This document shows positions 8,178-27,938 of a stretch of DNA of 31,672 nt, one piece after another (positions within the stretch are counted from its first letter, which is position 1; each line of letters starts with the position of its first letter). The stretch is from positions 1-31,672 of IMG/VR virus record IMGVR_UViG_3300013132_003858; one strand, written 5' to 3'. The stretch is from a virus. The translations under genes and the position numbers were made by a program. The notes below the pieces were generated by a model. That model had not been told where the DNA came from. It did no database searches and saw only the letters and a program-made list of their open reading frames with translations.

Positions 8178-8789
8178 ATGTCAAGAATAAAGAAACCTAC
8201 AACGTCTGGTGTTGTTCCAAATAAAACAGAACAAATTAAAGAAATTATAAAATGTGGCGGAGATGCTTCCTACTTTATCTCAAGGTATGTAAAAATTTCT
8301 CACCCAACCAAAGGTACATTACCATTTAAAACTTTCCCATATCAAGATAATTGTCTCACCGCTTTCCAAAAGCATCGTTTCGTTATTACAAACAAAAGCC
8401 GTCAGTTAGGTCTATCTACTCTCTCTGCGGCTTATTCACTTTGGATGGCTGTATTTCAAAAAGATAAAAATATTCTTGTTATTGCTACCCGTCTTGAAGT
8501 TGCAAAGAACTTTATTAAGAAGGTCAATAGCATGTATAGCAACTTACCTAAGTGGCTTGTAATGCCACAGGTTAAGGCTCAATCTGTTCGTTATCTTGAA
8601 TTCTCTAATGGTTCTAAAATTCAAGCCGTTCCAACTGGAAAAGATGCAGGACGTTCGGAGGGATTATCTTTATTAATCATAGACGAATGTACATCTCCTT
8701 CTACCTGTGTTATACTAAGAAATAAAGAAACAGGAGAAGAACGTGCCGAAAGCATTGGAAATTTGTTTTATTCCGACGAATACCGCTAA
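8178..8789 (+). CDS. terL: Terminase large subunit, N-terminal part fused to split-intein N half
   Basis: Residues 1-170 are the N-terminal ATPase half of a phage DNA-packaging terminase. ITNKSRQLGLSTLSAAYS is the deviant Walker A region and SLLIIDE is Walker B. Immediately after the catalytic Glu comes Cys (8688), opening a 33-residue intein N-fragment that reads CTSPSTCVILRNKETGEERA and ends SIGNLFYSDEYR before the TAA at 8787. The remainder of TerL lies in the gene starting at 10689. If both inteins are removed, the reading IIDE|CAHVEGIDELW restores the normal terminase motif. The protein alone cannot be a full ATPase and needs trans-splicing. Its 3' end overlaps the endonuclease gene in another frame. 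Confidence 0.9.
   Translation: MSRIKKPTTSGVVPNKTEQIKEIIKCGGDASYFISRYVKISHPTKGTLPFKTFPYQDNCLTAFQKHRFVITNKSRQLGLSTLSAAYSLWMAVFQKDKNILVIATRLEVAKNFIKKVNSMYSNLPKWLVMPQVKAQSVRYLEFSNGSKIQAVPTGKDAGRSEGLSLLIIDECTSPSTCVILRNKETGEERAESIGNLFYSDEYR
8688..8786 (+). other. Split intein N-fragment (IntN) in TerL
   Basis: These are 33 codons beginning with the catalytic Cys1 directly after the Walker B DE of TerL. The sequence follows intein block A (Cys, a valine strand, RNKETGE turn, SIGNLF helix). A usual split intein N half is about 100 residues, so this split point is unusually early, as in the known AceL-type TerL inteins. The fragment ends in a true stop. It pairs with the C-fragment encoded at 10689-11078. 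Confidence 0.85.
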
Positions 8790-10620
8790 AAGTCATTATA
8801 TATGTTTACTTTGTAAACATGAACAACCTATAGAAAAAGGTTATTCAGGATTTTGTAATCATGTTACATATAAACATATAAAATCTGGTGAGACAACAAT
8901 AGAGGAATATTTTAATAAACAACTAAATTTCTTTCCAAAAGAATATGGTTCTAGTTTTAGAAGCCCTTCTTGTAAAGAATGTTCTAAACCTACAAAATTC
9001 AAATCAATAGCTGCTGGATATGTAAGATTTTGCTCATTTAAATGTTCACAAAAAAATTCTGACACAAAAAAATTAAAATATGAACGAACTAAAGAATCTT
9101 TAATATTAAAATATGGAGTAGAAAATGCGTCTCAGATAAAAGACGTTCCAGAAAAAGTTAAAAATACAAAAAAACTCCGTTATGGGGATGAAAATTATGT
9201 TAATCGTGCCAAAGCAATTGAAACAAATCTTATTAGGCATGGCGTTGAAAATTATACTCAAACAGATGAATATAAAAAACAAACAAGGCAAACCAGTTTT
9301 TCTAAATATGGGGTAGAGCACTTTACTCAAGCTAAAGAAATTAAAGAAAAAGCAATCAAAACAAATCTTATAAAATATGGGGTTTCGTATCCAATGCAAT
9401 CTGAAGATGTAAAAAGAAAAGTAAAAGAAACAGTTGCAAATAATGGTGGATGGGCACTCCTTTTACCAGAAAATAGAGAAAAATCTAAACAAAAAATTAA
9501 ACAAAAAGTAATTGATCGAATTAAAAAATATAATATAACATTTGAAAATGTTGAGTTGCTATCATTAGATAATAAAACGTTTAAATGTAAAATTTGTAAT
9601 CATTCATTTGTAATGAATTCTTTTGGCACAGCCAAATCTAAACCAAGATCATATCCTCGCTGCCATACTTGTTTTCCTATCGGAAAACAAAATAAATGTT
9701 CTCTATTTCATCAAGAGTTTTTAGCATTTCTTGTTGAAGAATTAAAAATAAACTTAGATTCTATTAAACAAAATGATACAACAATATTGTGTAACATCAA
9801 TAAAGAAATTGATTTTTATTTACAAGATTATAATATCGCTATTGAATTAAATGGAAATATATGGCATACAGAAATATTTGGTGGCAAAGATAAAAGATAT
9901 CATCTGCAAAAAACTATCGAATGTGAAAAAAAACAAATTCAATTATTACATATATTTGAAGATGAATGGGATGCTAAAAAAGATTTAATCAAACAAAAAG
10001 TTTCTCATATTCTTGGATTGAGAAATCAAACAACTTCTGTATATGCAAGAAAATGCACCATAAAAGAAATTAGTCCTAAAAATTGTAATGATTTTCTAGA
10101 AAAAAATCATTTTCAAGGAGCAGAAACTAATTCTAAAATTCGTTTTGGTGCTTTCTTTAAAGAAGAATTGATTGCTGTTATGACTTTTGGAAAACCTAGA
10201 TTAAATCTGTCTGGAAAAAATGAAGAAGGTACATATGAATTAATAAGATTTGCGACGGATTATTCAATAAAAGGAGTTGGAATAGCATCAAAATTATTTA
10301 ACTATTTTATTAAAATATATATGCCATTTAAAGTTTATTCATATGCTGACAGAAGATGGACATCTACAATTAAAGAAAATGTATATATAAAATCTGGATT
10401 TGATTTAACTTCTTACTCTGAGCCAAATTATTTTTATGTAAATCCAAAAACTTCATTTAAATTAAGAGAAAACCGATTTAAATACAGAAAAACAGAAATA
10501 AAAAAACTATTTTCTAATTATGATGAAAATCTTACAGAATGGGAAAATATGAGATTAAATAAATATGATCGAATCTGGGATTGCGGTACAATCAAATATA
10601 CTTGGTTAAGAACCAAATAA
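8743..10620 (+). CDS. Free-standing homing endonuclease (Vsr/EDxHD-like) between split-intein halves
   Basis: A 625-residue multidomain nuclease. In order: Cys/His zinc-binding motifs (CLLC near residue 21, CKEC near 77, FCSFKC near 97); about five copies of a short repeat, KYGVENASQ, RYGDENYVN, RHGVENYTQ, KYGVEHFTQ and KYGVSYPMQ (residues ~123-219); another zinc motif (CKIC...CHTC, ~282-310). The catalytic core is at ~320-425, with EIDFYL, IAIELNGNIWH and HIFEDEW resembling the Vsr-like split-intein endonuclease family. A C-terminal GNAT-like region with FGKPR and YADRRW follows. The GTG start at 8743 has AGGAG 6 nt upstream, inside the IntN coding sequence in another frame. A nuclease gene between intein halves is the 'fractured gene' arrangement described for environmental phages. 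It presumably spreads the insertion into intein-less terL alleles. Confidence 0.85.
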   Translation: MPKALEICFIPTNTAKSHYICLLCKHEQPIEKGYSGFCNHVTYKHIKSGETTIEEYFNKQLNFFPKEYGSSFRSPSCKECSKPTKFKSIAAGYVRFCSFKCSQKNSDTKKLKYERTKESLILKYGVENASQIKDVPEKVKNTKKLRYGDENYVNRAKAIETNLIRHGVENYTQTDEYKKQTRQTSFSKYGVEHFTQAKEIKEKAIKTNLIKYGVSYPMQSEDVKRKVKETVANNGGWALLLPENREKSKQKIKQKVIDRIKKYNITFENVELLSLDNKTFKCKICNHSFVMNSFGTAKSKPRSYPRCHTCFPIGKQNKCSLFHQEFLAFLVEELKINLDSIKQNDTTILCNINKEIDFYLQDYNIAIELNGNIWHTEIFGGKDKRYHLQKTIECEKKQIQLLHIFEDEWDAKKDLIKQKVSHILGLRNQTTSVYARKCTIKEISPKNCNDFLEKNHFQGAETNSKIRFGAFFKEELIAVMTFGKPRLNLSGKNEEGTYELIRFATDYSIKGVGIASKLFNYFIKIYMPFKVYSYADRRWTSTIKENVYIKSGFDLTSYSEPNYFYVNPKTSFKLRENRFKYRKTEIKKLFSNYDENLTEWENMRLNKYDRIWDCGTIKYTWLRTK

Positions 10621-10688: not shown

Positions 10689-11078
10689 ATGAGCAAAACC
10701 GATAAAGAAGAAAAAATAAAAAAAATATCTGAATGGCAGGTATTAACTCCTGATGGATTCAAAGATTTTGAAGGTGTAAAAAAAGTAAAAAAAGATTATG
10801 TACTTAAAATTACACTTGAAAATGATCAGCAAATAATTTGTTCTGGCGGTCATCAATTATTTGTAAAGCAAAAAAAACAAGATATTCTTGAAGAAGATAC
10901 TGAAGGATTTTTATTTGCTGATTTAATTCAACCATTTGAAATGTTTGTTAAGACAAGAAATGATGTATATCAAACGGTATTATGTGTTGAAAAAATCTGT
11001 AAATCACAAGATATGTTTGATCTTGTAAATGTAAAAGATGGATATCGATACTATACAAATGATATATTAAGTCATAAC
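10689..11078 (+). other. Split intein C-fragment (IntC) in TerL
   Basis: These are 130 codons. A charged leader (MSKTDKEEKIKKISEWQ) precedes the HINT-fold body LTPDGFKDFEG, block B SGGHQLFV (the usual TxxH is GxxH here), and blocks F/G MFDLVNVKDGYRYYTNDILS followed by HN. The splice nucleophile after Asn is Cys (11079-11081), giving an IIDE|C junction. It complements the 33-residue IntN at 8688-8786. Confidence 0.87.
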
Positions 11079-13595
11079 TGTGCTCACGTTGAAGGTATTG
11101 ATGAATTATGGCTTGGTTTGTGGCCAACTTTATCTTGTCTTGTTGGAAACACTAAGGTCTTTACTGACAAGGGTATATTTTCAATTGAAGATTTTCACAA
11201 AAATAGATTTATTGGTGAATACTTTGAAATCAATAATTGGAAAGTCTACGGAAAAAATGGACTTGAGCCAATTTCACACGGTTATGTTTCTCCAGAAAGC
11301 GATACAATTAAATTAACAACAAAACATGGATATAACTTAGAAGGAACATTAAAGCATCCATTATGGATTCTTGATTCTAATGGTGGGTCCATGAAACAAA
11401 TCCAGCATATAAAACATGGAGATTATCTTCGTATTCAAATTGGTATGAATTGTTACGGAACAGAGGAATTAGATCCAGATCTTGCTTATATGCTTGGTGG
11501 ATATTCAGCAGAAGGCTGTATTAAAAAAAGAATAAGAAATAAAAATAAAAGAATAGAACATACAGGAATACAAATTACAAATGCAGATAATGAATTTCGA
11601 GATGTATTTTTAACAAAAGCAAAAAATACGATATTTGAAAAAAATTTTAAAGCTTATGGAAAATATAATCTTACTTTGTTTTCGGTTTCGGCTGTTAAAA
11701 AATTAATTGAACTTGGTGTTTCGTCTGAACAACTATCGTATAGTAAAACTGTACCAAATATAATTTGGACTAGCACTAAACAAACACAACAAAATTATTT
11801 ATCTGGTTTATTTGATGGGGATGGCACGGCATATAAAAGTTTTGCAAAAATTGAATTAACATCTGAGCAAATGATCAAAGATATTCAACTTTTATTATTG
11901 AATATGGGATTTCACCCAAATGTTAATAAAAAGAAATCACGTACAAAACTAACAAACACACGTTCAGCCAGAACGAGTTGGGTTTTAGAAATTCCAAAAA
12001 GTGAATCTAAAAAATTTGCAGAAGAAATAGGGTTTAGGATACAAAGAAAACAGAAACAAATGCTTCTTGTAGACAATAAGAAACATAGTGATCTAAATCG
12101 TTGCCCAATATCAATTATTAACAAAACACTAAATGAGATTATTAAAAAAAGTAATAAATCAAAATGGTGGTTTCATCAAAATGGTTTAAGAACAAATCTT
12201 TTAAATGGAAACGATTCTAATCGACTCGTTAGCAACACTTGGTTGAATAAATTTAAAAGTCTTGTTTATACAGCAAATCCATCATTATGCAACGATCAAA
12301 ATATTACAGAATTTTTCAATAATGTAATTGGTGATTTCTTTTGGGATCCTGTTACAGAAACTCAATCTGGCAAAGCTAAAACTTATGATTTTACAGTACC
12401 ACGTAGTCACACCTTTCTACAGAATGGAATTTTAGGCTCAAACACTGGCGGAAGTGCTATTTTAATTAGTTCTCCGAGTGGTGTTGGAACTTTATTTCAT
12501 AAGATTTGGTTAGGGGCTAAAGAAGGCGAAGATGGAGAAGGGAAGCAAAATCCAGGGCAAGGTACGAATAATTTTTATCGTATTGAACTTCCCTGGACCG
12601 TTCATCCGGAAAGAGATCAACAATGGTTTGAAGAACAGAGAGCAGAGATTGTATCTGCAAAAGGTGAACGTGGAGTAAATCAGGAACTTTTGTGTGCATT
12701 TAATTCAAGTGGTGATACGTTCTTAAAAACAGAATTTTTAGATGCTCTTGAGAACAATTGTTGCAAACCAGTTGCATACTATGGACCCTCTGGAAATGTC
12801 TGGATATGGAAATATGCTGAACCAGAACACAAGTATTTAATTACGGCAGATATAGCTAGAGGGGATGCGGGAGACTTTAGTACGATTCAAGTAATTGATA
12901 CTACAAAAGACGAACAAGCCGCAGAATTCCAAGGTAAGATTCCCCCAGATGAATTGGCAGATTTAATGATAGATCTTGGATTCAAATATAATCAAGCTCT
13001 TCTATGTCCAGAATTAAATTCATTTGGTCTTATGACTGCAACTGCTCTTAAAAAGAGCAATTATAAAAATCTTTTTTATGAGAAATTTTCAAGAAATGTT
13101 TTCATAACTCCTGTTAATGATGAAATAAAAGATGAGATGCCTGGTCTTACTACAAGTGCAAGAACTCGTGAAGAAATGTTAGCAAAGTTAGAGGGAGTAT
13201 TACGAAATCAAAAAATTAGATTATATTCTGTTCGCTTGATCAATGAGATCAAAACATTTATCTGGAAAAATAATAAAGCTCAAGCAATGAAGGGCTATAA
13301 TGATGACTTAATAATGTCATTAGCTATTGCTTGTAATCTTTACGAGGCTGCCGGTACTACCGCATATGATTCACTTGAAGTAGCAATATCAATGTTGCAA
13401 GGTATGTCTAGAAATACTCAGTTTATGGGAAAGAATGGCGAATGGGGGCAGAAAAATACATATATGCCACCGATTATTCCAACAAATGCAAGTGTGCTTC
13501 AGCCTCATGAAAAAATGAGAAATGCTTCTATAACCAAAAGTCAAAATATGAATGATCCTATTTTAAGAAATTTTAAATGGATCATGGATGAATGA
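10689..13595 (+). CDS. terL: Split-intein C half + terminase large subunit C-terminal part with a second, complete intein
   Basis: A 968-residue precursor. Residues 1-130 are the intein C-fragment (block B SGGHQLF, ending YYTNDILSHN). The next 19 residues are CAHVEGIDELWLGLWPTLS, the terminase segment after Walker B. Residues ~150-585 are a second intein. The rest, from TGGSAILISSPSGVG, is the terminase coupling motif and the RNase H-like nuclease: DIARGD, CPELNSFG and GYNDDLIMSLAIA carry the expected acidic residues. After both splicing events the mature TerL would be about 170+19+383 residues, normal for a phage large terminase. It cuts and translocates concatemeric DNA into proheads. Any failure of either splicing step would block packaging. 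Confidence 0.92.
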   Translation: MSKTDKEEKIKKISEWQVLTPDGFKDFEGVKKVKKDYVLKITLENDQQIICSGGHQLFVKQKKQDILEEDTEGFLFADLIQPFEMFVKTRNDVYQTVLCVEKICKSQDMFDLVNVKDGYRYYTNDILSHNCAHVEGIDELWLGLWPTLSCLVGNTKVFTDKGIFSIEDFHKNRFIGEYFEINNWKVYGKNGLEPISHGYVSPESDTIKLTTKHGYNLEGTLKHPLWILDSNGGSMKQIQHIKHGDYLRIQIGMNCYGTEELDPDLAYMLGGYSAEGCIKKRIRNKNKRIEHTGIQITNADNEFRDVFLTKAKNTIFEKNFKAYGKYNLTLFSVSAVKKLIELGVSSEQLSYSKTVPNIIWTSTKQTQQNYLSGLFDGDGTAYKSFAKIELTSEQMIKDIQLLLLNMGFHPNVNKKKSRTKLTNTRSARTSWVLEIPKSESKKFAEEIGFRIQRKQKQMLLVDNKKHSDLNRCPISIINKTLNEIIKKSNKSKWWFHQNGLRTNLLNGNDSNRLVSNTWLNKFKSLVYTANPSLCNDQNITEFFNNVIGDFFWDPVTETQSGKAKTYDFTVPRSHTFLQNGILGSNTGGSAILISSPSGVGTLFHKIWLGAKEGEDGEGKQNPGQGTNNFYRIELPWTVHPERDQQWFEEQRAEIVSAKGERGVNQELLCAFNSSGDTFLKTEFLDALENNCCKPVAYYGPSGNVWIWKYAEPEHKYLITADIARGDAGDFSTIQVIDTTKDEQAAEFQGKIPPDELADLMIDLGFKYNQALLCPELNSFGLMTATALKKSNYKNLFYEKFSRNVFITPVNDEIKDEMPGLTTSARTREEMLAKLEGVLRNQKIRLYSVRLINEIKTFIWKNNKAQAMKGYNDDLIMSLAIACNLYEAAGTTAYDSLEVAISMLQGMSRNTQFMGKNGEWGQKNTYMPPIIPTNASVLQPHEKMRNASITKSQNMNDPILRNFKWIMDE
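11136..12443 (+). other. Complete LAGLIDADG intein inserted in TerL
   Basis: A 436-residue intein. Block A is CLVGNTKVFTDKGIFSIEDF with Cys1. Block B is GTLKHPLWIL. The two LAGLIDADG helices are LGGYSAEG and LSGLFDGDG, each with an acidic residue, so the nuclease may be active. The C-terminal blocks are YDFTVPRSHTFLQNGILGSN, with the conserved final His replaced by Ser before Asn. The +1 residue is Thr (TGGSAIL). The insertion point, WPTLS|TGGSA, lies in the conserved terminase segment between Walker B and the coupling motif, 19 residues from the first intein. Confidence 0.92.
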
Positions 13596-14641: not shown

Positions 14642-14995
14642 GGGGATAAATTGGTTTCGACGGAGATTTGAGATATTAAATGCGTAGTAACGGGTGTTTA
14701 TAACCGTTTAAAACTATAAACAAATAATGTAAGCCAACGATAGTTCTTACGCTCTTGCAGCCTGATAGCAGCAAGCAATTATATGAAACGCATGTTTGAG
14801 CCGATTATATAGTTGTCATTTGATCAAACTGGACCATGTATATTGTTTTCTTTTCCATGGTTGACATATAGAAAACTAAATATATTAAAACCTGCTCTTT
14901 GGTGTTCTTATATTGAAATCTAAATAAAGAAGCTAGATTACGTAGACTTTAATTTTTGATTGTTTCCGGACGCAGTTCGACTCTGCATATCTCCA
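14642..14995 (+). ncRNA. ssrA: tmRNA (transfer-messenger RNA)
   Basis: The 5' end GGGGATA pairs with TATCTCC (14988-14994) to form the acceptor stem. The tmRNA signature GGTTTCGAC follows at the 5' side. The 3' T arm reads GCAG TTCGACT CTGC. The tag reading frame is at 14733-14765: GCC AAC GAT AGT TCT TAC GCT CTT GCA GCC TGA, i.e. ANDSSYALAA, a standard degradation tag with the protease-recognised LAA-type end. CCA is not encoded after the discriminator A. Its role is to rescue stalled ribosomes and tag the nascent peptide. It is intact-looking and lies with tRNAs in this phage. Confidence 0.93.
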
Positions 14996-15005
14996 TAAAA
15001 TTATC

Positions 15006-16848: not shown

Positions 16849-17886
16849 ATGTATGCTTTAAGCATGAATAATAATATTAAAATTGATGTTGTAATAGATT
16901 TGGCACATGGAGACAGCGGAAAAGGTAAAGTATCTCATGCTTTACTCGCTAAACGTGCCTATACTCATTGTTTAAGATTTGGTGGAGGTGGTAATGCTGG
17001 TCATACCATATATCATGAAGGAAAGAAATTTGTAACTCATCTTATTCCTTCTGGGGTATTTCATGGTATACGTTCTGTTATTGGACCCGGCTGTGTTTTG
17101 AATACAAATAAATTTCTTGAAGAAGTAGATTATCTCCAAGATAATCTTGGTAAGAAAATTAATATTGGAATTGCAAAAAACACTCATCTTGTTACAGAAG
17201 AACATTTAATTGAGGATAGCGGCGATACACGTATTGGTACAACCAAGACCGGAAATGGTCCTGCCTATTCTTCAAAATATTCTCGTAAGGGTAGAAGAGC
17301 GGAGGGAGATGAAAAACTTAAACCTTTTTTAACCGATATGTATGGAGAGTTTTATAATTCTGATATGCCTATTAAAATTCTTGCAGAAGGGGCACAGAGT
17401 TTTAATCTAGATATAGATTGGGGAGATTATCCATATGTTACGAGCAGTCATTGTGGAATTGGAGGAGTCCTCAACAATGGGTTTCACCATAGGCATATAG
17501 GGAGCGTATATGGCGTCGTAAAGGCTTATGACACCTATGTAGGTGCCAAGCAGTTCCAACCATCTGGAGAGGTTTTTAACCGCATCCAGGAGGCAGGACA
17601 GGAGTTTGGAGCGACTACAGGAAGAAGGCGTCAAGTTAATTGGCTTAACTGGGATATTATTCAGCGCGGTATTCAGATGAATGGTGTTAATACTTTAATT
17701 GTTAACAAGGGCGATATTTTGGAAAAAGTAGGTGCGTGGGGCATATATAAGCATAATACTTTAATAGAATTCTCTAGCAAAAAATATTTTGAAAATTGGC
17801 TTGTACATGAGGCTAGGGAAAGAAATAATATTAATGTAGTTTTTTCGGAAGGTGCAGATGATATGACTTTTATAAATCATCTGTAA
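16849..17886 (+). CDS. purA: Adenylosuccinate synthetase family (PurA/PurZ-like)
   Basis: A 345-residue, short-form enzyme. Motifs: HGDSGKGK (residues ~20-27, P-loop with the catalytic Asp kept), GGGNAGHTI (46-54), THLIPSGV, IGTTKTGNGPAY, AEGAQSFNLDIDWG, YPYVTSS, and FGATTGRRR (the Arg for aspartate/IMP binding). PurA joins IMP and aspartate using GTP. The phage relative PurZ uses dGMP for 2-aminoadenine genomes and, as I recall, has lost this Asp, so PurA is the better call. No PurZ partners (MazZ, DatZ) are in the window. The 17430-17640 stretch is visibly richer in G+C than its surroundings. A second ATG lies at 16864; neither has a Shine-Dalgarno sequence, but CATATT sits 6 nt before the first. 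Confidence 0.85.
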   Translation: MYALSMNNNIKIDVVIDLAHGDSGKGKVSHALLAKRAYTHCLRFGGGGNAGHTIYHEGKKFVTHLIPSGVFHGIRSVIGPGCVLNTNKFLEEVDYLQDNLGKKINIGIAKNTHLVTEEHLIEDSGDTRIGTTKTGNGPAYSSKYSRKGRRAEGDEKLKPFLTDMYGEFYNSDMPIKILAEGAQSFNLDIDWGDYPYVTSSHCGIGGVLNNGFHHRHIGSVYGVVKAYDTYVGAKQFQPSGEVFNRIQEAGQEFGATTGRRRQVNWLNWDIIQRGIQMNGVNTLIVNKGDILEKVGAWGIYKHNTLIEFSSKKYFENWLVHEARERNNINVVFSEGADDMTFINHL

Positions 17887-19031: not shown

Positions 19032-19037
19032 AAATTT

Positions 19038-19116
19038 CTGGGTGTAGACGAGGAAGCCTTCTAAGCTTTTATCCGTAAATGGATCTGAAAATATTGGTTC
19101 GAATCCAATCATCCAG
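19038..19116 (+). tRNA. Aberrant tRNA-like gene, probable Arg (TCT), lacking a D arm
   Basis: Acceptor CTGGGTG/CATCCAG (7 pairs, one G:T), T arm ATTGG TTCGAAT CCAAT (perfect), anticodon arm GAAGC CTTCTAA GCTTT giving anticodon TCT. Only six bases (GACGAG) lie where the D arm should be, while the variable region is 23 nt with its own small hairpin ATCC/GGAT. It may be a decayed tRNA-Arg, or a truly D-arm-less tRNA. CCA is not encoded; the base after the acceptor is G. Confidence 0.55.
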
Positions 19117-19234
19117 GTTCCGCATATAAATATGGATTTGAACATTAAAAATTAGTTTAAAATAAACTTGATGTTCAAGTCTTTCCAGGGACGAATTAAT
19201 ATATGCAATTAGAAATAAATTTAATATGTAAAAA

Positions 19235-20736: not shown

Positions 20737-20765
20737 TTTACATTTTATAAGAAACTATGTATATA
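20737..20765 (+). promoter_or_regulatory. Promoter of the structured RNA region
   Basis: TTTACA (20737-20742), 17-nt spacer, TATATA (20760-20765). The start would be near 20772, directly at a hairpin (CTCAATT GAAT AATTGAG, 20775-20792). The box is followed by about 430 nt without a gene but full of helices. Confidence 0.6.
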
Positions 20766-20771
20766 TACTAT

Positions 20772-21160
20772 ATGCTCAATTGAATAATTGAGTTGTTAAT
20801 TGAAAACTTAATATATAAGAAATCCTGTTCTATGGACCGTTCATCATCTTAGAGGTTCCGACAAAGTAATAGGATTAAGAAAGCCGTAAGTAGTTGTTGC
20901 ATAAAGTCTTACTAATAGTAGCAATGACGAAAGAAAAACAAGAGTTTACTCTTGGGAGTCGGTTACATTATATGTATTCTTTAATATGATGATTAAAGAT
21001 GGGCAGAGGCGACCTGTCTAACCGGAAAGATGTAGTACTTTCTTCTTCATTAATTTGGTGACAAAGCCCCTTCTCGGGAAAGAGATCGTGGATAGAACGA
21101 TAAGCGAGAAATTCTTTAGTCTTGTAAAACTGGGAAACTCGTACTATCAAAAATTTCAAA
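20772..21160 (+). ncRNA. Candidate large structured non-coding RNA (unassigned class)
   Basis: A 478-nt stretch (20724-21201) without a credible gene. Helices seen: 20775-20781/20786-20792 (7 bp); AATCCT 20821-20826 with AGGATT 20871-20876; CCGAC 20858-20862 with GTCGG 20958-20962; GTAAG 20886-20890 with CTTAC 20908-20912, interleaved with TTGTTGC 20894-20900 pairing GTAGCAA 20918-20924, i.e. a pseudoknot; CAAGAG/CTCTTG 20939-20954; GGCAG/CTGTC 21002-21018; GTAGTAC 21032-21038 with GTACTAT 21141-21147 enclosing TTCTCG/CGAGAA (21071-21110) and ATCGT/ACGAT (21085-21101). It is purine-rich in loops and has a promoter at the front. Context (phage, beside tRNAs) resembles that of the GOLLD and ROOL classes, but I cannot confirm a match. 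RNase P and group I signatures were looked for and not found. Confidence 0.55.
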
Positions 21161-21201
21161 TCTAGTACACATTCAATAAAAATATGTTATATTAGATTTA
21201 T

Positions 21202-21339
21202 ATTGGCAGAAAGATCGATTGGGATCAGATTGATTTGCCTCAATTGTTGAAAACACTATCGATAGTAAAAATAGCAGAAAAATTAGGTTGTTCAGATGTT
21301 GCTGTACATAAGAGATTAAAGAAGTTAAATTTGAAATAA
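21202..21339 (+). CDS. Tiny HTH DNA-binding protein (45 aa), apparent ATT start
   Basis: The frame reads (I/M)GRKIDWDQIDLPQLLKTLS followed by IVKIAEKLGCSDVAVHKRLK and KLNLK, a helix-turn-helix of the kind found at the end of phage HNH endonucleases and in small regulators. A stop lies just upstream and there is no ATG, GTG or CTG before the conserved start, so initiation would be at ATT (21202) or at the later TTG 12 codons in. A promoter-like TACACA...TATATT lies just upstream. It could equally be a remnant of an endonuclease whose body was lost. Confidence 0.5.
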   Translation: MGRKIDWDQIDLPQLLKTLSIVKIAEKLGCSDVAVHKRLKKLNLK

Positions 21340-21352
21340 TTTGTTTGCGTAT

Positions 21353-21632
21353 TCCATTTTAGCTCAGTTGGTAGAGCGTTCGGCTGTCAGTTGGCAGCTT
21401 CATCAAGAAACTGGTGAATGATAAATTGCCCAAATTCGGGGAACTCTTAACAGGTAAAGCTGATGACAATCCCGAGCCAAGCCCGAAAGGGAAGGTGTAG
21501 AGACTAGAGGGGCAATACCCTAACGAGAAAGACGAGGGTAATGGGATAGTCCAGACCACAAACCGAAAGGGTAGTGAAAATTATAGTGGTAAAGTAACCG
21601 AATGGTCCCTGGTTCGAGCCCAGGAAATGGAG
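21353..21632 (+). tRNA. tRNA-Asn (anticodon GTT) interrupted by a group I intron
   Basis: Exons are 21353-21387 and 21595-21632. Joined, they give acceptor TCCATTT/AAATGGA, D arm GCTC...GAGC, anticodon arm TTCGG CTGTTAA CCGAA, T arm CCTGG TTCGAGC CCAGG, discriminator G: a canonical tRNA-Asn. The unspliced sequence looks like a GTC anticodon, but the spliced loop CTGTTAA is the normal Asn one. The intron falls between the second and third anticodon bases. Confidence 0.9.
21388..21594 (+). ncRNA. Self-splicing group I intron (207 nt, ORF-less) in tRNA-Asn
   Basis: P1: exon GCTGT (21383-21387) pairs with GCAGC (21394-21398), giving the required U:G at the splice site. P10: intron GTTG (21390-21393) pairs with exon-2 TAAC. 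P2: TTCATC/GGTGAA. P4: TCGGG/CCCGA. P6: CCC GAAA GGG. P7: GACTA (21502-21506) with TAGTC (21547-21551). P8: ACCCT/AGGGT. The last intron base is G (21594). Small size and the P7 region resemble the tRNA introns of subgroup IC3. It carries no endonuclease. Confidence 0.9.
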
Positions 21633-21803
21633 AATGACGTGCCAAATAGCTAATGGCTAGTAAGGTTAGTTTCCTTATGATTGAAGCAGGGTTGCTCCTG
21701 TAATAAAAACTCCAAAGCCTGGAAGGCTCGTTGTGATAGCAGCGAAGTAGAAACCGATGGAGGGAAACCTGAGATATTAGGACTACACTATCTTCTTTTT
21801 AAG
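21633..21803 (+). ncRNA. Structured leader-like RNA between tRNA-Asn and the terminator
   Basis: No gene. Helices: TAAGG/CCTTA (21661-21677), CAGG/CCTG (21687-21700), AGCCT GGA AGGCT (21716-21728), the latter enclosed by CTCCA (21710-21714) with TGGAG (21758-21762). Purine-rich loops (GCGAAG, GGGAAACC) and a following terminator suggest a stable RNA processed from the tRNA-Asn transcript. Unassigned; it may belong to the same transcript as the 20772 RNA. Confidence 0.45.
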
Positions 21804-21838
21804 AACCCTGATGTTTGATCGCATTAGGGTTTTATTTT
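21804..21838 (+). terminator. Rho-independent terminator (plus strand)
   Basis: AACCCTGATG (21804-21813) and CATTAGGGTT (21822-21831) form a 10-pair stem with one G:T, followed by TTATTTTTT. It ends the tRNA/ncRNA transcript. Confidence 0.85.
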
Positions 21839-21854
21839 TTATTTATTAAAAATA

Positions 21855-26672: not shown

Positions 26673-27938
26673 ATGACTTACGATAAAGAAACCATTGAGA
26701 AAGATTGGAAAGAGAACCCACGTTGGAATGGCATTGTCCGTCCATATACCGCCGAAGATGTTTTAAAGCTTCGTGGTAAGGTTGTAATAGAACACTCCCT
26801 TGCCCGTCTTGGAGCAAATAAACTTTGGAGGCGTCTTAACAATCAATCATATGTCGCCGCCCTTGGCGCTCTAACCGGTAATCAAGCTATTCAAGAAGTG
26901 GCTGCTGGATTAGAAGCAATCTATTTGAGCGGGTGGCAAGTAGCAGCAGATGCAAATCTTGCAGGACATATGTATCCAGATCAATCTCTTTATCCTATTG
27001 ATAGCGTTCCAGCCGTTGTTAAAAAAATCAACAATGCTCTCTTGCGTTGCGAACAGATTGATAGTGTAAATGGGGATAATAGTAAAGATTGGATGCAGCC
27101 AATAGTAGCCGATGCAGAAGCCGGCTTTGGTGGTAATCTAAATGCTTATGAGTTAATGAAGATGATGATTGAAGCGGGTGCTGCTGGTGTTCATTTTGAA
27201 GATCAACTATCCAGCGCAAAGAAGTGTGGTCATTTAGGCGGCAAGGTTCTTGTTCCAACAAGTGAGGCTATCGCTAAACTTATTGCAGCTAGATTAGCCG
27301 CTGACGTAATGAACGTTCCTACTCTTGTAGTTGCCAGAACAGATGCCGAGGCTGCAAATCTTATAACAAGCGATATAGATTTAAGAGATCGTCCATTTGT
27401 CACCGGAGAAAGAACCGGAGAAGGCTTCTATCGTATCCGTAATGGATTGGAGAGCTGTATAGCCCGTGGATTGGCTTATGCTCATTATGCTGACCTTCTA
27501 TGGATGGAGACAAGCAAACCCGATTTAGAGGTTGCTAGAGCCTTTGCAGAGGGTATCCACAAGGTATATCCAGGCAAGCTACTTGCTTATAACTGTTCAC
27601 CAAGTTTCAATTGGTCAAAGTATTTGGATCGTGGACAGATGCAAACGTTTAGAGAAGAGTTGGCTGCTATGGGATATCGTTTCCAGTTTATAACTCTTGC
27701 CGGCTTTCATTCTCTTAATACGTCTATGTTTGAGTTAAGCAAGGCTTATAAGAAAAATGGTATGTTAGGTTTCTCTGAGTTGCAGCAGAGAGAGTTTGCA
27801 ATGCAGGATGAGGGTTTTCGAGCAGTTAAGCATCAAAGCTTTGTAGGAACCGGATATTTTGATTATGTTCAAAATACGGTTCAAAATGGTGCTTCAACAG
27901 TTGCGTTGAAAGATAGTACAGAAGCGGAGCAATTTTGA
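26673..27938 (+). CDS. aceA: Isocitrate lyase
   Basis: A 421-residue protein, close to the usual bacterial length. Motifs: catalytic KKCGH (183-187, Cys185), ADAEAGFGG (147-155, Mg-binding Asp), [40 protein letters not shown] and [12 protein letters not shown]. All core residues are present, so it should be active. It splits isocitrate to succinate and glyoxylate, the first step of the glyoxylate shunt. No malate synthase is in the window. Composition is richer in G+C than most neighbours and host-like (CGC, GGC, CTT codons), pointing to recent transfer. The gene is followed 1 nt later by thymidine kinase, a probable operon. Confidence 0.93.

What the first reader, a model, noticed from the sequence alone, without database searches (positions are those of the whole stretch)
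20737..21160. Large structured RNA of unknown class with its own promoter and pseudoknot
About 430 bases have no gene but many complementary helices, including an interleaved pair (20886-20924) and a three-level nest at 21032-21147. It has a promoter and sits among tRNAs in a large phage, as the GOLLD and ROOL RNAs do. I could not match its motifs to a known class, RNase P or group I. It is the best candidate for something undescribed in this window.
Basis: partly seen in the sequence, partly recalled or inferred. Interest (0 to 1): 0.75.

Follow-up and report, generated by a model that had tools for sequence, protein, structure and literature searches.

The report
Undescribed pseudoknotted RNA in phage tRNA cluster
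A large phage and six relatives found in metagenomes carry, in their tRNA gene cluster, a 330-base RNA whose intricate, repeatedly knotted fold has been preserved by compensating mutations and matches no catalogued RNA family, so it is probably a new class of viral RNA whose job is unknown.

Summary
The 430-base gap holds a real, conserved structured RNA ("RNA1", core 20822-21149, + strand). Independent sequence motifs retrieve the same six other IMG/VR phage contigs (L002-L006, L019). RNA1 aligns over its whole length in all seven (62-92% identity). Comparison gives eleven helical elements and four long-range pairings (one of them weaker). The best, PK4 (20877-20883 with 21038-21044), is rewritten by compensatory changes in L004 and partly in the window. 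An exhaustive search finds 18 covarying five-pair windows, all in these elements, against 0.4 expected. No Rfam family matches credibly, even at E = 10; GOLLD, ROOL, RNase P and introns are among those not matched.

RNA1 lies between tRNA-Ala and tRNA-Asn in a block of translation genes. It persists whether tRNA-Asn is 3 or about 720 bases away, and after tRNA-Ala is lost. I therefore read it as an autonomous RNA cut out of a tRNA transcript and acting in trans, probably in phage translation or RNA processing. Function is inferred, not shown. A group I intron and a second conserved RNA lie just downstream.

The parts
20822..21149 (+). RNA1 core: conserved pseudoknotted non-coding RNA, about 330 nt
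   Evidence: Homologues in six IMG/VR contigs, 62-92% identical; 28 pairs with changes on both sides against 12.9 in shuffles and 5-14 in slid structures
20822..20875 (+). 5' domain: P1 (20822-20828/20869-20875) closing hairpin P2 (20834-20838/20854-20859)
   Evidence: P1 fully paired with C-G to U-A in L004; P2 compensated in L002 and L019
20841..20992 (+). PK1: P2 loop 20841-20847 (UCAUCAU) with P6 loop 20986-20992 (AUGAUGA)
   Evidence: 7 pairs, 48 of 49 cells paired; C-G in L004 for U-A elsewhere, A-U/G-U at pair 6
20858..20962 (+). PK2: 20860-20862 (GAC, up to CCGAC from 20858) with 20958-20962 (GUCGG)
   Evidence: kept in all 7; C-G, U-A and U-G seen at the variable pair; short, two Cs shared with P2, so the weakest of the four
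20877..21044 (+). PK4: joining strand 20877-20883 (AAGAAAG) with P8 loop 21038-21044 (CUUUCUU)
   Evidence: 5 covarying pairs per 5-pair window, no broken cell; UCAAUC/GGUUGA in L004, AAGGA/UCCUU in five others; null maximum 2
20884..20892 (+). Invariant single-stranded CCGUAAGUA
   Evidence: identical in all 7
20893..20928 (+). P3 (20893-20900/20921-20928), loop of variable length
   Evidence: all 5 inner pairs covary
20939..20954 (+). P4 hairpin
   Evidence: CAAG/CUUG, GAAC/GUUC, AUAA/UUAU, GCAU/AUGC in different members
20979..20998 (+). P6 hairpin, loop YRUGAUGA
   Evidence: 3 covarying pairs, none broken
21000..21020 (+). P7 hairpin, conserved loop ending GCGAC
   Evidence: 4 covarying pairs
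21021..21059 (+). P8: outer 21021-21025/21055-21059, inner 21030-21035/21045-21050
   Evidence: outer pairs 1-2 and inner pairs 1-5 covary
21060..21084 (+). Most conserved stretch: GACAAAGC-CCC-UUCUC-GGG-AAAGAG with P9 (21067-21069/21076-21078)
   Evidence: invariant apart from the 5' GAC in L019; P9 never varies, so it is not tested by covariation
21085..21101 (+). P10 hairpin, loop with GAUAG
   Evidence: two compensated pairs in the window against the relatives
21091..21148 (+). PK3: P10 loop 21091-21095 (GAUAG) with 3' tail 21144-21148 (CUAUC)
   Evidence: 5 pairs invariant; sixth pair A-U in five, U-A in L019, mismatched in the window
21104..21142 (+). P11 (21104-21108/21138-21142)
   Evidence: G-C in four, A-U in three members at the variable pair
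21159..21199 (+). Imperfect AU-rich hairpin 3' of the core (P12), probably not part of it
   Evidence: covarying hairpin in the consensus fold; missing in L004, where tRNA-Asn follows at once
21802..21833 (+). Intrinsic-terminator-like hairpin; the first + strand one found downstream of RNA1

Best explanation
RNA1 is an example of an undescribed RNA class, confined so far to one clade of large phages. Shown: the region is non-coding and conserved, and it has a fold of eleven helical elements with four long-range pairings that tie its 5' third to its middle and its 3' tail to the P10 loop. Inferred: it is made as part of a tRNA-cluster transcript (tRNA-Ala, RNA1, tRNA-Asn, RNA2, terminator). 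Its ends are freed by tRNA maturation (3' processing of tRNA-Ala upstream, RNase P at the 5' end of tRNA-Asn downstream). The compact body then persists as a stable RNA acting in trans, through its invariant loops and single strands (CCGUAAGUA; GACAAAGCCCCUUCUCGGGAAAGAG; GCGAC), on a ribosomal, tRNA-maturation or RNA partner during infection. Confidence per step: real folded RNA 0.97; new class 0.9; autonomous and trans-acting 0.65; link to translation or RNA processing 0.4.
For: Homologues found by several independent motifs that converge on the same six contigs. Compensatory changes across helices and long-range pairings: 18 covarying 5-pair windows, all in the model, against a null of 0.44; PK4 has 5 covarying pairs, null maximum 2. 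No credible Rfam match at E <= 10 for the window, L005 or L019. tRNA-Ala upstream in the relatives and tRNA-Asn downstream; the tRNA-Asn 5' end follows RNA1 by about 3 nt in L004. RNA1 persists when the gap to tRNA-Asn grows to roughly 54 (L006), 200 (window), 480 (L003, L005) and 720 nt (L019) and when tRNA-Ala is lost (window), which argues for autonomy. Neighbours include tmRNA, a class II (D/K/N-type) aminoacyl-tRNA synthetase and a CCA-adding/poly(A)-polymerase-type enzyme.
Against: No expression data. All seven members come from one phage clade with shared synteny, so the neighbourhood is not independent evidence of function. Only seven sequences: several invariant elements (P9, most of PK1 and PK3, the 25-base core) cannot be tested by covariation. 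Single-sequence folding energy is ordinary.
Confidence: 0.62

Rival explanations
1. An RNA of the GOLLD/ROOL type in the functional sense: an ornate phage RNA that assembles with copies of itself, the loop-loop pairings (PK1, PK4) being between molecules.
For: Same niche (phage tRNA islands), elaborate fold with loop-loop contacts and unknown function; ROOL and GOLLD form RNA-only cages, ROOL through quaternary kissing loops (PMC12286853, read).
Against: About 330 nt against 659 nt and more than 800 nt; no covariance match to either family. Nothing here tells intra- from intermolecular pairing.
Confidence: 0.2
2. A ribozyme or RNase-P-like catalytic RNA that processes the tRNA transcript it sits in.
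For: Multiply pseudoknotted core with invariant single strands, as catalytic RNAs have; location inside a tRNA cluster.
Against: No match to RNase P, group I, group II or any ribozyme family at E <= 10. The spacing to tRNA-Asn is free, so no fixed cleavage site is evident.
Confidence: 0.12
3. A cis-acting leader or spacer that controls transcription or maturation of the downstream tRNA-Asn.
For: Between tRNA-Ala (where present) and tRNA-Asn; in L004 it abuts tRNA-Asn.
Against: A gap of 3 to about 720 nt, including an inserted HNH gene, leaves RNA1 intact. No + strand terminator in it. Far larger and more conserved than a processing spacer needs.
Confidence: 0.13
4. A chance open stretch or a decayed gene or intron with no function.
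For: Single-sequence folding energy is ordinary; a homing-endonuclease remnant lies next to it.
Against: Compensatory evolution over seven sequences; invariant 20-nt motifs although most members are only 62-72% identical; intact HNH genes in relatives lie outside RNA1.
Confidence: 0.01

Closest known systems
ROOL RNA (Rfam; cryo-EM in PMC12286853)
   Same: Encoded by phages and prophages near tRNA islands, complex fold with several pseudoknots, no known function
   Different: 659 nt in the solved example; no covariance match to RNA1; RNA1 oligomerisation untested
GOLLD RNA (Rfam; PMC12286853)
   Same: Phage-encoded, near or containing tRNAs, first found in metagenomes
   Different: More than 800 nt in many members; no covariance match; RNA1 has no tRNA inside it
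Bacterial RNase P RNA and group I/II introns
   Same: Pseudoknotted RNAs; a group I intron lies about 230 nt downstream in tRNA-Asn
   Different: No match in RNA1 at E <= 10; their catalytic core sequences are not seen
tmRNA
   Same: Phage-encoded translation-related RNA with pseudoknots; this phage has one at 14642-14998
   Different: RNA1 shows no tRNA-like domain or conserved reading frame and no match to the tmRNA model

Membership tests
GOLLD | Match to the Rfam covariance model | tested here: not met
   No hit at gathering threshold or at E <= 10 in the window, L005 or L019
GOLLD | Length over 800 nt in many members, conserved 3' and variable 5' part | tested here: not met
   RNA1 is 320-349 nt in all seven, conserved end to end apart from the P3 loop
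ROOL | Match to the Rfam covariance model | tested here: not met
ROOL/GOLLD | Location in phage tRNA islands | tested here: met
   tRNA-Ala and tRNA-Asn as neighbours
ROOL/GOLLD | RNA-only oligomer | not testable with these tools
   Loop pairings exist (PK1, PK4) but intra- or intermolecular cannot be told
RNase P RNA | Match to any RNase P covariance model | tested here: not met
   no hit at E <= 10
Group I intron | Match to Intron_gpI and an interrupted gene | tested here: not met
   RNA1 no hit; the nearby 21378-21575 does match (62 bits) and is a separate element
tmRNA | tRNA-like domain and match to the tmRNA model | tested here: not met
   the only tmRNA hit in the window is 14642-14998
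any Rfam family | Match to one of 4227 families | tested here: not met
   in RNA1 only sub-threshold chance matches to eukaryotic families at E 0.9-10
RNA1 family (proposed) | Shared helices and long-range pairings with compensatory changes | tested here: met
   a 132-position 3' model finds all seven at 133-162 bits and nothing convincing in six named large phages, though the seven were used to build the model

The most novel reading that the evidence does not exclude
RNA1 is the founding member of a new class of phage RNA machine: a compact, multiply pseudoknotted RNA excised from tRNA transcripts that acts in trans (as a catalyst, an RNA-only assembly or an RNP) on translation or tRNA maturation during infection by large phages.
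Probability: 0.45. Interest if true: 0.85.

Novelty: categorically new. Interest (0 to 1): 0.7.

Why it matters
Large RNAs of unknown function in phage tRNA islands (GOLLD, ROOL) are an open problem. RNA1 is another, apparently unrelated and much smaller class in the same niche, and its fold is now specified well enough for mutational tests, for example breaking and restoring PK4. It offers a tractable size for structure determination and a direct way to ask why phages keep ornate RNAs beside their tRNAs. 'Categorically new' here refers to the RNA class (sequence and fold); whether the function is new is unknown.

Tried and rejected
Single-sequence folding as evidence (z -0.25): uninformative. 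Motif hits L007-L018, L020-L029 and L050-L087, and GTDB hits L030-L043: inspected, chance matches in unrelated sequence. Blastn against phage and plasmid collections with the window and L019 sequences: no RNA1 match; L005 matched only outside RNA1, mostly through its HNH gene. Two GTDB genome pattern scans: none. Covariance search of six named large phages: none (Salicola phage SCTP-2 E = 0.36, not significant). A covariance search of prokaryote genomes could not be run for a virus record. Literature search for core motifs as text: none. A C/D-box reading of UGAUGA was dropped: the sequence is a loop explained by PK1. A P5 hairpin (about 20963-20976) is AU-rich and was left out of the statistics. 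In the control on the plain MAFFT alignment P2, P3, P4 and P8 are misplaced in some members; the structure-guided alignment restores them but leans towards the structure, which is why both are reported.

Full report
Starting point. The window is the whole of an IMG/VR virus record of 31,672 bases. Rfam at gathering thresholds reports only a tmRNA and four tRNAs in it. With thresholds opened to E = 10 the stretch 20737-21160 has no credible hit on either strand, while a group I intron at 21378-21575 appears (62 bits). Folded alone, the stretch is no more stable than shuffled sequence (z -0.25). From the window alone the finding could not be told from chance.

Relatives. The 25-mer GACAAAGCCCCTTCTCGGGAAAGAG occurs exactly in five other IMG/VR phage contigs, L002-L006, which align with the window over 160-340 nt at 69-73% identity. 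A motif from the middle of the RNA (TGATGA..CAGANGCGACCTG) retrieved these five and a sixth, more divergent member, L019. Patterns from the 5' domain, from P10 and from the P9 region return only these contigs and chance matches. Separate modules therefore travel together: it is one element, here called RNA1. It is 320-349 nt long with 62-92% pairwise identity. It was not found in the phage, plasmid or GTDB collections at the sensitivity of those searches.

Structure. A structure-guided alignment of the seven gives helices P1-P4 and P6-P11, P8 having an outer and an inner part (P5 is too AU-rich to test). Compensatory changes occur in all of them except P9, which never varies. Four long-range pairings follow. 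PK1 joins the P2 loop to the P6 loop (UCAUCAU/AUGAUGA; C-G in L004 for U-A). PK2 joins GAY after P2 to RUC (C-G, U-A, U-G). PK3 joins the P10 loop GAUAG(A/U) to the tail (U/A)CUAUC (A-U becomes U-A in L019). PK4 joins the strand after P1 to the P8 loop (AAGGA/UCCUU in five members, AGAAA/UUUCU in the window, CAAUC/GGUUG in L004). I first proposed PK1-PK3 by eye. PK4 came out of an unbiased scan of all 5-pair windows on the plain MAFFT alignment, where it ranked first. On the refined alignment the scan gives 18 covarying windows, every one in the proposed helices (one reaches a base beyond P1) or the four long-range pairings. The mean is 0.44 in 100 column permutations (maximum 5, never with more than 2 covarying pairs in a window). 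A count on the MAFFT alignment gives 28 pairs with changes on both sides against 12.9 +/- 2.5 when partners are shuffled and 5-14 when the structure is slid. The seven share ancestry, so these counts are not probabilities; but PK4 differs in two separate members, L004 and the window.

Only P10 and part of P3 survive. GUAAG/CUUAC, GUAGUAC/GUACUAU and CUUCUCG/CGAGAAA lack compensatory change and are broken in relatives. A promoter is not indicated.

Context. The relatives form one phage clade with shared gene order. Upstream of RNA1 lies tRNA-Ala(TGC): whole in L002, L004, L005 and L006, cut by the contig end in L003, and by my reading of the sequence degenerate in L019. The window lacks it there, together with a 280-aa gene that neighbours it in relatives. 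Downstream lies tRNA-Asn(GTT), intact in L004, split by a group I intron in the window, L003 and L019, and carrying a 48-nt insert at the same anticodon-loop site in L005 and L006. L003, L005 and L019 have an HNH-type homing endonuclease gene between RNA1 and tRNA-Asn, preceded by what reads as a broken tRNA 5' half; the window keeps only its C-terminal helix-turn-helix (21196-21339). After tRNA-Asn comes a second conserved non-coding RNA and then a terminator. Elsewhere in the held loci, in different members, are tmRNA, a class II (D/K/N-type) aminoacyl-tRNA synthetase and a CCA-adding/poly(A)-polymerase-type enzyme.

Mechanism. The gap from RNA1 to tRNA-Asn runs from about 3 to about 720 nt, and tRNA-Ala can be missing, without loss of RNA1. 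That speaks for an autonomous RNA rather than a cis-acting spacer. No terminator-like site on the + strand separates it from the tRNA-Asn in the window. The simplest route is co-transcription and release by tRNA maturation: RNase P cutting at tRNA-Asn would fix the 3' end in L004 to within a few bases of PK3. This step is inference. What the mature RNA does is not shown; the invariant single strands and loops are the likely contact or active sites. A link to translation or RNA processing is favoured by the neighbours, but in a single clade neighbours are weak evidence.

Comparison. GOLLD and ROOL share the niche and the ornate, pseudoknotted character (PMC12286853), but their models do not match and both are at least about twice as long. 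RNase P, group I, group II and tmRNA models do not match. RNA1 resembles the ornate phage RNAs in kind, but is not a member of a described family.

Verdict. The object is real and, within the resources searched, undescribed. Confidence: 0.97 that it is a folded RNA, 0.9 that it is a new class, 0.65 that it acts in trans.

Noticed in passing
window 21637-21840 (also L003, L006, L019): A second conserved non-coding RNA (about 160 nt plus terminator) directly after tRNA-Asn, 84-91% identical in the BLAST matches, with compensated pairs (9 of 57 in 4 sequences) and no Rfam match; missing in the close relative L005.
   Followed up: partly
window 21357-21640: tRNA-Asn(GTT) split by a group I intron (21378-21575 in the Rfam match) inside the anticodon; ARAGORN misses it. 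Same in L003 and L019.
   Followed up: partly
L005 6144-6264 and L006 867-987: A 48-nt insert at the same anticodon-loop site of tRNA-Asn where relatives carry the group I intron; not a group I intron by Rfam. Either a broken tRNA or an unusual mini-intron.
   Followed up: no
window 21196-21339; L003 11367-11729, L005 5764-6153, L019 7037-7600: HNH homing-endonuclease genes inserted at tRNA-Asn with a duplicated or broken tRNA 5' half upstream; only the C-terminal HTH remains in the window. Related genes flank tRNA-Asn in named jumbo phages such as Klebsiella phage Muenster and Xanthomonas phage XbC2.
   Followed up: partly
window 19037-19118 and L019 1444-1525: A tRNA-like gene called with a four-base anticodon (ttta), in both the window and L019: possible expanded anticodon loop.
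   Followed up: no
window 14642-14998; L004 1-355: Phage-encoded tmRNA.
   Followed up: no
window 10689-13595: Terminase large subunit interrupted by a LAGLIDADG intein.
   Followed up: no
window 16849-17886, 8743-10620, 26673-27938: Adenylosuccinate synthetase (PurZ-like PHROG), a protein with a weak Mom-like DNA-modification match, and an isocitrate lyase family enzyme: unusual metabolic and DNA-modification genes for a phage.
   Followed up: no
L004 2137-3453, L005 1317-2630: Class II (D/K/N) aminoacyl-tRNA synthetase a few kb from tRNA-Asn: a possible phage-encoded asparaginyl-tRNA synthetase.
   Followed up: no
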